Origin: an uncultured Flavobacteriaceae bacterium
GTDB lineage: Bacteria; Bacteroidota; Bacteroidia; Flavobacteriales; Flavobacteriaceae
Direction of reading: 5' to 3'
NCBI GenBank assembly: GCA_938011315.1
Contig: CALLUG010000001.1
Coordinates: 1-64,000, forward strand
Length of the DNA: 64,000 nucleotides
In this document: piece after piece, positions 4,939-59,570 of the stretch
Layout: every line of letters starts with the position of its first letter
How positions within the stretch are numbered: position 1 is the first letter of the stretch
The notes under the pieces: generated by a model
What the model saw: only the letters and a program-made list of their open reading frames with translations
Told to the model about the DNA's origin: nothing
Databases searched by the model: none
Program-made: the position numbers and the translations under genes

Positions 4939-6057
4939 ATGAGACAAATAGTGCTTACACTTATAGGATTACTTTTAATAGCTATGTCGATTTTTGTAGT
5001 AAAAAAGATTTCTAATAGCAAAAAAGATAAACGGCCTATACCTGCCAAAGTTGTAAAAACAGTCTTTGCAAACCAAATAAAAAATACAACAGTCCCTATT
5101 GTTATTCCCGCCAATGGCACTCTAGTGGCTAAGCGACGAATAGAGGTTTTTGCTGAGGTTCAGGGTGTTTTTAAGGCAGGAACTAAGGCATTTAAGCCAG
5201 GTCAAAGGTACCGTACAGGGCAAGCACTAATTACAGTTGATAACTCAGAGTATTACGCTACAGTACAATCTGCTAAAAGTAATTTTTACAATGCAATAAC
5301 GGCAATAATGCCAGACTTACGCTTAGACTTTCCAGACGTTTTTAGCAAATGGCAGCAGTACCTTAATACTTTTAAAATAGAGCAAACAACGTCCAAGTTG
5401 CCCGAAATGAACTCGGAGAAAGAACGTTACTTTATTACAGGAAGAGGTATTGTGTCTAATTACTACGATATTAAAAACTTGGAGCAACGCCTTTCAAAGT
5501 ACAGCATTAAAGCACCATTTAATGGTATTTTAACACAAGCCTTAGTTACAGAAGGGTCCTTAATAAGAAACGGACAAAAACTAGGCGAATACATCGACCC
5601 TTCTGTTTACGAAATGGAAGTGGGTATAAGCAAATCCTATATTGATTTGCTACAAGTCGGAAAAAAAGTAAGTTTAAGCAATTTAGAACACACACAAACT
5701 TACCAAGGAACCGTATCGCGTATTAATGGTAGTGTTGACCCCACAACACAAACCGTAACAGTCTATATAGAGGTTAAAGACAATACACTAAAAGAAGGCA
5801 TTTACTTAGAAGCGCAACTTGCCGCAAAACAAGAGGAAAACGCCATAGAAATTGACAGAAATTTACTTTTAGAAAACAACAAAATATTTGTTGTACGAGA
5901 TACTGTATTAGACCTTATTGCCGTAAAACCTGTCTATTTTGGAAGCTCTAAAGTTGTTTTAAAAAACGTTCCGGAGGGCACTGTTATTTTGTCTAAACCA
6001 CTACAAGGTGCTTTTCCCGGAATGCGTGTAAAAGTAGCAAACAAAAACACGCTTTAA
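4939..6057 (+). CDS. Efflux RND transporter periplasmic adaptor (HlyD/MFP) subunit
   Basis: Single N-terminal TM, lipoyl/barrel-type motifs (YSIKAPFNGILTQALVTEGSLIRNGQKLGEY); immediately precedes an RND permease. Confidence 0.9.
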   Translation: MRQIVLTLIGLLLIAMSIFVVKKISNSKKDKRPIPAKVVKTVFANQIKNTTVPIVIPANGTLVAKRRIEVFAEVQGVFKAGTKAFKPGQRYRTGQALITVDNSEYYATVQSAKSNFYNAITAIMPDLRLDFPDVFSKWQQYLNTFKIEQTTSKLPEMNSEKERYFITGRGIVSNYYDIKNLEQRLSKYSIKAPFNGILTQALVTEGSLIRNGQKLGEYIDPSVYEMEVGISKSYIDLLQVGKKVSLSNLEHTQTYQGTVSRINGSVDPTTQTVTVYIEVKDNTLKEGIYLEAQLAAKQEENAIEIDRNLLLENNKIFVVRDTVLDLIAVKPVYFGSSKVVLKNVPEGTVILSKPLQGAFPGMRVKVANKNTL

Positions 6058-56656: not shown

Positions 56657-58039
56657 TTATAAGTATATTTCGTCTTTTACATAACTTGCATTTAACCAAA
56701 AACAATGTTTTGTATACTCGGTAAGCTTTGTTAATTTATCTGCAATTGGTAATTCATAAGTATCGTCTTTGTCTCTTGCATGCGGTCTAACGTGGCTAAT
56801 TCTATTTTCGATTTTCTTTGGAAAAAAGGTTTTTCTAACTCCTTTTTCAGTTACTTCTTTTACAATTTTTCCTTTCGAAACAGTTTCTACCATTTTTTTC
56901 CAAACTTTCTTTGCTTCAAGAATATCAGAATGTTGCATATTCCAAAATTTAACTTTTCTTAAAATCAACTTTTCTCCCTCAAATTGATAAAACACAAAGA
57001 AAAATTTACTTTCCAAAATGTTTTTAAAACCTGAGTCTTCCCAATCTGTTTCAATAAGTTCTTGATATTGAAATGTTGGAAATGAAATGTCTTCTTTTGG
57101 TAAATTATTTTCTTTAAGTCTGATTGTTTTCACTTGAATATCAGCTTTTTCAAATTCCTCTATTTTTTGACCAAGTTTAAGCCCTAAAATTGCATTTGTT
57201 AAGTTTGCAAAATAGCTTTTTGCATTTTGATTAAGATTTAATTCTAGGTCTTTTTCTATTTGTTCTGCGGATTTTCCATAGAACGGATGAAACTTTAAAA
57301 TTACTATTTCTTCTAAAGATTGAACCTTGTCTAAAATTTCAGGTCTTTCAATTATTTTGCCATAAATAGCAGTTTCTTCTTGGGCAATATTTGCAATTAT
57401 ATGATTTACATAACCTTGTTTTAAAGAATATGCTCTTTGTTTCGCTTTTTTTTCATTGAAAGGTTGGTCTCTAAACGATTTTAAAGCTGTTGAACCTTTT
57501 GTACAAGCGCCAAGATAAAAGGTGTCTCCTTCGGATAATTCGTGTGCTTTTCCGTCCTTAATTTTTTGATTGATATATTCCCAATCTTGTTTTATGATTT
57601 TTAAATCTTCACTTGGGTATTTCCAACTGTCAACTAATTTTATAATGTAGTCAAGTAGGCTTAAATCTCTATTGTGAAGATAAAATATTAATAGCAAATG
57701 ACAATTTTTCTTCCAAAATGAACTTGTTTCAAAATCTTCTTCGTGTACTTTTAAGTAATTAATAATATTTAAAACTAACCTTTCTTTAGAGCGAAATTCT
57801 CCATTTTTTAGAATTTTTAATGGACTTGATTTAAGTTCCATTCCAGCTTCTCTAAAATCAGGTTCTGCATCTGAATTTGGTTCGTAACCGAAATAGAATT
57901 TTTCTAATATTTGACCAAAATTACCTTTTCCTTTATAACCATGTTTTTCAATTTCAATGCCACAAGCCTCCCTTAAAGTTTGGTCTTTTAATAATTTAGC
58001 AAATTCAATAATTGAGTCTGCTGAATTTATATTATACAT
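56657..58039 (-). CDS. Sau3AI/MutH-like type II restriction endonuclease (predicted GATC-type)
   Basis: GYKGKGNFGQILEKFYFGYEPNSDAEPDFREAGMELKSSPLK resembles the MutH/Sau3AI catalytic region (E..DxxxxGxELK). The track start at 58045 is TTG; the ATG at 58039 overlaps the methyltransferase stop (ATGTATAA). Confidence 0.85.
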   Translation of the reverse strand: MYNINSADSIIEFAKLLKDQTLREACGIEIEKHGYKGKGNFGQILEKFYFGYEPNSDAEPDFREAGMELKSSPLKILKNGEFRSKERLVLNIINYLKVHEEDFETSSFWKKNCHLLLIFYLHNRDLSLLDYIIKLVDSWKYPSEDLKIIKQDWEYINQKIKDGKAHELSEGDTFYLGACTKGSTALKSFRDQPFNEKKAKQRAYSLKQGYVNHIIANIAQEETAIYGKIIERPEILDKVQSLEEIVILKFHPFYGKSAEQIEKDLELNLNQNAKSYFANLTNAILGLKLGQKIEEFEKADIQVKTIRLKENNLPKEDISFPTFQYQELIETDWEDSGFKNILESKFFFVFYQFEGEKLILRKVKFWNMQHSDILEAKKVWKKMVETVSKGKIVKEVTEKGVRKTFFPKKIENRISHVRPHARDKDDTYELPIADKLTKLTEYTKHCFWLNASYVKDEIYL

Positions 58040-59265: not shown

Positions 59266-59570
59266 TTAGTATTTTTCATTTTCTTGTGCTTTGTAATAGT
59301 TGATTTTTTCTTGTGCTATTTTCAATATTTCGGAAATAGATTCTGTATGCTTTAGCTTGTCTGTAATTTTTTTGAAAACCAATTTATTAGAAGTTCATTC
59401 TCCAAAAGCTTATAAAATTTAGCAACTCTTACGATTTGTTTTTTCATTTTTCTCAAACTTACTAGTTAGGGATTGGTCAATATTTATTTTAGCCGCAATT
59501 TTACGTAGAGTTAAACCTTTTTCTTGCCTTGCGCATGTCAAAGTATTTTTTAGTGTTTTCAGTGGTATAA
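59266..59570 (-). pseudogene. Frameshifted XRE/HTH-type controller gene upstream of the methyltransferase
   Basis: Minus strand frame from 59532: ARQEKGLTLRKIAAKINIDQSLTSKFEKNEKTNRKSC*. A second frame gives VRVAKFYKLLENELLINWFSKK, and a third, after an A7 run, gives KITDKLKHTESISEILKIAQEKINYYKAQENEKY*, ending 1 nt before the 59264 ATG. Confidence 0.7.

What the first reader, a model, noticed from the sequence alone, without database searches (positions are those of the whole stretch)
59266..59570. Broken XRE-type controller gene in front of the R-M module, missed by ORF calling
The 400-bp gap upstream of the C5-methyltransferase encodes, in three successive minus-strand frames, a recognisable HTH protein: ARQEKGLTLRKIAAKINIDQSLTSKFEKNEKTNRK / VRVAKFYKLLENELLINWFSKK / ITDKLKHTESISEILKIAQEKINYYKAQENEKY. 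The second break falls at an A7 homopolymer (TCAAAAAAATTACAG). The last frame stops 1 nt before the methyltransferase ATG, as expected for a former or current operon. Either the controller is dead while R and M stay intact, or the A7 run is a slippage/phase-variation switch, or there is sequencing error. Loss of the controller should change R/M balance.
Basis: partly seen in the sequence, partly recalled or inferred. Interest (0 to 1): 0.6.

Follow-up and report, generated by a model that had tools for sequence, protein, structure and literature searches.

The report
Dead regulator before intact restriction-modification pair
A small regulatory gene that in related bacteria sits in front of a Sau3AI-type DNA-cutting and DNA-protecting gene pair has decayed here together with its own switch site, while the pair itself is kept intact; it is an ordinary pseudogene, but one of several natural cases showing that this system can live without its controller.

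Summary
Window 59562-59266 (minus) is the remnant of a 102-aa XRE/HTH_19 gene ("C"). Intact copies lie in the same place in 19 of 39 related loci, overlapping the C5-methyltransferase (M) gene, usually with the Sau3AI-family endonuclease (R) next. The window copy has lost its ATG (CTG), carries a 14-nt deletion, one net base lost where the A7 run now is, and a mutated stop. Of 69 positions invariant in 16 relatives, 17 are changed (at most 4 in any relative), against 4/296 in M and 5/282 in R: C has decayed, M and R have not. The regulatory site is gone too: all 19 intact loci carry a -7 promoter box fused to a palindrome (consensus TAnnTTTGGACA-N5-TGTCT); the window and its genome lack it. 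The A7 run is not ancestral and one more A could not mend the gene, so slippage switching is rejected; sequencing error alone cannot explain four lesions plus many substitutions. C, M and R overlap in one operon, so losing C should change expression level rather than R/M ratio. Six relatives keep M and full-length R without this C. Ordinary, moderately informative.

The parts
59266..59562 (-). Pseudogene of the XRE/HTH_19 regulator (C) of the C-M-R operon
   Evidence: Match to intact homologue, E 6.5e-27, 3 internal stops; alignment with 19 intact copies
59560..59562 (-). Lost start codon: CTG where 18 of 19 relatives have ATG and one (L047) has TTG
   Evidence: alignment
59438..59447 (-). Site of a 14-nt deletion (RKPTM region of relatives), first frameshift
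   Evidence: alignment
59367..59373 (-). A7 run; one net base fewer than relatives (G then A6); second frameshift, restoring the first frame
59266..59271 (-). Original stop mutated to TAC; reading ends one codon later at TAA
59563..59615 (-). Eroded promoter/operator region; no TAnnTTTGGACA-N5-TGTC site left
   Evidence: PWM best score in region 10.8 against 23-32 for 18 members; shuffles reach 16.8; exact pattern absent from the whole genome
58032..59279 (-). C5-cytosine DNA methyltransferase (M), intact, overlapping the C remnant by 14 nt
   Evidence: PF00145 E 1.3e-68; TIGR00675; motifs PCQ, ENV, QRRR present
56657..58039 (-). Sau3AI-family restriction endonuclease (R), intact, overlapping M by 8 nt
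   Evidence: NF040973 535.7 bits, cut-off 300; PDB 4pxg E 2.7e-73; PF02976

Best explanation
This is a dead regulator gene at the head of a C-M-R operon. In relatives the 102-aa XRE protein most likely binds a GACA-N5-TGTC palindrome fused to the -7 box of the operon's own promoter and represses C, M and R together (negative feedback). In the window lineage the protein gene, its start codon and the promoter/operator have all decayed, so the overlapping M and R genes are now expressed from some other promoter or by read-through, without this control. Shown: homology, lesions, loss of the site, conservation of M and R, other C-less relatives. Inferred: repression (about 0.6 likely), present-day expression and activity of M and R, and the new promoter.
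For: Intact C in the same place in 19 of 39 loci related to M. Start loss, 14-nt deletion, -1 and stop change in the window. Leave-one-out test: C 17/69 invariant sites changed against at most 4/77 in relatives; M 4/296 and R 5/282, both within the relatives' range. Window-vs-relatives median dN/dS for C is 0.137, against 0.063 among relatives; M 0.064 against 0.060; R 0.082 against 0.060. The -7 box plus palindrome is in 19/19 intact loci and in the distant L062 (C 39% identical), occurs once in 61 genomes searched, in front of C, and is absent from the window and its genome. M with full-length R but no such C directly upstream: L038, L054, L057, G081, G229, G126. GATC is below expectation in the window (70 seen, 113 expected).
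Against: No expression or activity data. dS is near saturation, so the timing of C death is rough. GATC depletion is not specific: several other 4-bp palindromes are low as well (GGCC 0.47, CATG 0.67). Repression is inferred from operator position; known C proteins can both activate and repress. M and R could have been refreshed by recombination after C died.
Confidence: 0.88

Rival explanations
1. Phase variation: slippage in the A7 run switches the controller on and off.
For: An A7 run does lie at the second break.
Against: Relatives have a G before A6 there, so the run is not a conserved switch; the 14-nt deletion and the missing start codon remain whatever the run length; promoter and operator are also gone.
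Confidence: 0.02
2. Sequencing or assembly error in an intact gene.
For: One of the breaks is a single base in a homopolymer; no reads are available.
Against: Homopolymer error does not produce a 14-nt deletion, a start-codon change, a stop change, 17 substitutions at invariant residues and an eroded operator, while M and R next door are clean.
Confidence: 0.03
3. A shortened or frame-shifted product is still made and works, for example through ribosomal slippage on the A-rich tracts.
For: The two frameshifts compensate and both lie in A-rich stretches.
Against: Two slips would be needed from a CTG start with no promoter box; five residues of the HTH region are missing; conserved residues are changed at a high rate; no operator is left for it to bind.
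Confidence: 0.03
4. A paralogous HTH protein in the same genome takes over control in trans.
For: An intact 44%-identical homologue exists at G000:C12:113598, in front of a ResIII-type helicase gene.
Against: The operator in front of M is gone, so there is no known site for it to act on.
Confidence: 0.04

Closest known systems
C.Csp231I / C.EcoO109I-type controller proteins of Type II R-M systems
   Same: Small HTH proteins encoded directly in front of R-M genes, with a palindromic site of 5-N5-5 geometry (CTAAG-n5-CTTAG for Csp231I) in their own promoter; Csp231I keeps high endonuclease activity after deletion of C (PMC4824078).
   Different: Here C precedes M, then R, all overlapping in one operon; the site is GGACA-N5-TGTCT fused to a -7 box and single rather than double; no solved C protein is found by sequence search up to E = 1.
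C.Kpn2I
   Same: A C protein that represses the methyltransferase promoter rather than activating R (PMC6237814).
   Different: Kpn2I genes are transcribed separately with C and M divergent and the binding site inside the C gene.
Sau3AI restriction-modification (GATC)
   Same: R is a Sau3AI-family enzyme above the curated cut-off; M is a C5 methyltransferase.
   Different: In the flavobacterial relatives an XRE regulator heads the operon; whether the original Sau3AI locus has one was not checked here.

Membership tests
Sau3AI-family type II restriction endonuclease (window R) | NCBIfam equivalog NF040973 above its curated cut-off | tested here: met
   535.7 bits, cut-off 300
Sau3AI-family type II restriction endonuclease (window R) | Cleaves GATC and is blocked by C5 methylation from the neighbouring M | not testable with these tools
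   needs enzyme assay
C5-cytosine DNA methyltransferase (window M) | PF00145 / TIGR00675 and catalytic motifs | tested here: met
Controller (C) protein of a Type II R-M system (intact relatives) | Small XRE HTH protein encoded next to R-M genes | tested here: met
   PF12844 45.8 bits, cut-off 30.2; 19 loci
Controller (C) protein of a Type II R-M system (intact relatives) | Palindromic C-box in its own promoter | tested here: met
   19 of 19 loci, and the distant L062; binding itself untested
Controller (C) protein of a Type II R-M system (intact relatives) | Sequence similarity to a structurally solved C protein | tested here: not met
   no protein named as an R-M controller among PDB matches to E = 1
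Controller (C) protein of a Type II R-M system (intact relatives) | Regulates R and/or M transcription | not testable with these tools
   needs reporter or RNA data
Functional controller (window copy) | Open reading frame with start codon and operator | tested here: not met
Phase-variable gene | Repeat-length change alone restores the frame of a full product | tested here: not met
   14-nt deletion and lost start remain

The most novel reading that the evidence does not exclude
The intact relatives define a C-protein class not described in the papers read here, in which one palindrome fused to the -7 promoter box controls a whole overlapping C-M-R operon, and lineages repeatedly discard the controller once the system is established; the window catches that loss half way, with protein, start codon and operator all eroding while M and R stay under selection.
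Probability: 0.5. Interest if true: 0.42.

Novelty: new member of a known kind. Interest (0 to 1): 0.3.

Why it matters
Controllers are thought to matter most when an R-M system enters a new host. A family with intact, dying, internally deleted and absent controllers beside conserved methyltransferase (and often endonuclease) genes lets one test whether the controller is needed only for establishment. The conserved site gives a simple marker for finding intact members.

Tried and rejected
Slippage switch, sequencing error, programmed frameshifting and trans-control by the C12 paralogue were considered and rejected or given low weight. The palindrome search of the own genome with one mismatch gave 2 places (4 strand-hits) against 10 strand-hits for the reversed control, so nothing above chance. 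A viral-contig scan with M found no relatives. No terminator-like site lies between the upstream HlyD-type gene and M, and the one sigma70-like match is below the chance mean; the RNA fold of the leader is unremarkable (z 0.66). A literature search for C loss in flavobacterial systems returned nothing. A loss of C shared with the sister L038 is possible but the fork is weakly supported (90/88), and L038 keeps no C sequence upstream of its M start.

Full report
What is there. On the minus strand the order is HlyD-type gene (60758-59679), the remnant (59562-59266), M (59279-58032) and R (58039-56657). M is a C5-cytosine methyltransferase and R a Sau3AI-family endonuclease well above the curated cut-off.

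What the intact gene looks like. A scan with M gave 39 related loci. In 19 of them a 102-aa ORF, MKTLGDTLKCAREEKELILRKVAAEVDIDQSLISKFEKNERKPTMEQ..., stands in the same place; a 39%-identical one stands in front of M in L062. It is an HTH_19 protein (45.8 bits). Its last codons overlap the conserved start of M by 11 nt. Seventeen of the 19 loci have a Sau3AI-like R beside M, although L031's R is frame-broken near its end and L034 has an extra gene between M and R.

The lesions. Aligned with 19 intact copies, the window copy has CTG for ATG, a 14-nt deletion, one base fewer at the A7 run and TAC for the stop. The indels add to -15, so the outer segments share a frame. Relatives read G before A6 at the second break; the A7 run therefore came with the lesion.

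C has decayed, M and R have not. Among positions identical in 16 relatives (leaving out the divergent L047), the window C differs at 17 of 69, whereas no relative differs at more than 4 of 77 when tested the same way. M differs at 4 of 296 (relatives 0-6) and R at 5 of 282 (relatives 0-20). L047 itself is divergent (23 of 73) but intact and keeps the switch site, so divergence alone does not mean death; the lesions do. Pairwise dN/dS agrees in direction, with dS close to saturation. If M or R had drifted as long as C, dozens of such changes would be expected; this is an inference, and later recombination of M and R is not excluded.

The switch site. All 19 loci, including L047 with its C at about 60% identity, have a -7 box running into a palindrome, consensus TAnnTTTGGACA-N5-TGTCT; L062, whose C is only 39% identical, has it too. 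TAnnTTTG is the -7 box of the flavobacterial main sigma factor (PMC9723704). The exact pattern occurred once in 61 genomes, directly upstream of a C gene (G046). That paper places the box at -12 to -5, so the palindrome would cover the transcription start, which suggests repression; this is inference. In the window the best match scores 10.8 against 23-32 for members, and shuffled sequence reaches 16.8.

Controllers are lost repeatedly. L045 keeps the site but its C is reduced to a few codons; L044 and L050 keep neither; these three also lack the Sau3AI-type R. L038, L054, L057, G081, G229 and G126 have M and full-length R without this C directly upstream. On the M tree the C label needs 6 changes, at least 3 forced by well-supported branches; gains cannot be told from losses in all of them. 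In the 400-genome family sample M-like genes were in 64, R-like matches in 19 and C-like matches in 18 genomes.

How it works. The likeliest intact design is an autorepressed operon in which C sets the level of M and R together. Losing C and its site should then alter level more than ratio. Csp231I shows that endonuclease activity can stay high without C, although the deletion strain was outcompeted (PMC4824078).

Verdict. A real, dead regulator; ordinary as a pseudogene, useful as one point in a natural series of controller loss.

Noticed in passing
G000, 12 places: The window's genome holds 12 matches to C5 methyltransferases, several with an HTH gene just upstream (e.g. C10:18520, C12:82736), so R-M-like loci are numerous for a 2.25 Mb genome.
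   Followed up: partly
L044, L045, L050 about 5166-5834: In three Winogradskyella loci M is followed by a 206-222 aa ORF with an IDEKAQ stretch and, for the L045 copy, no Pfam or NCBIfam match; possibly a different endonuclease paired with the same M.
   Followed up: partly
L034 5221-6390: A 389-aa ORF without Pfam match is inserted between M and R.
   Followed up: partly
L138 (G202), L140 (G265): M and R are both cut by an inserted block with an HTH gene and a 156-aa ORF of the same kind in both genomes.
   Followed up: no
L023, L024, L025, L027: Four family genomes show only a 3'-end stub of R (57-109 aa open frames) away from contig ends.
   Followed up: no
L083 1489-3287: A 44%-identical HTH gene in the same genome stands directly before a ResIII-type helicase gene.
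   Followed up: partly
window 1-64000: GGCC (39 seen, 82.7 expected) and GATC (70 seen, 113.3 expected) are low in the window.
   Followed up: no
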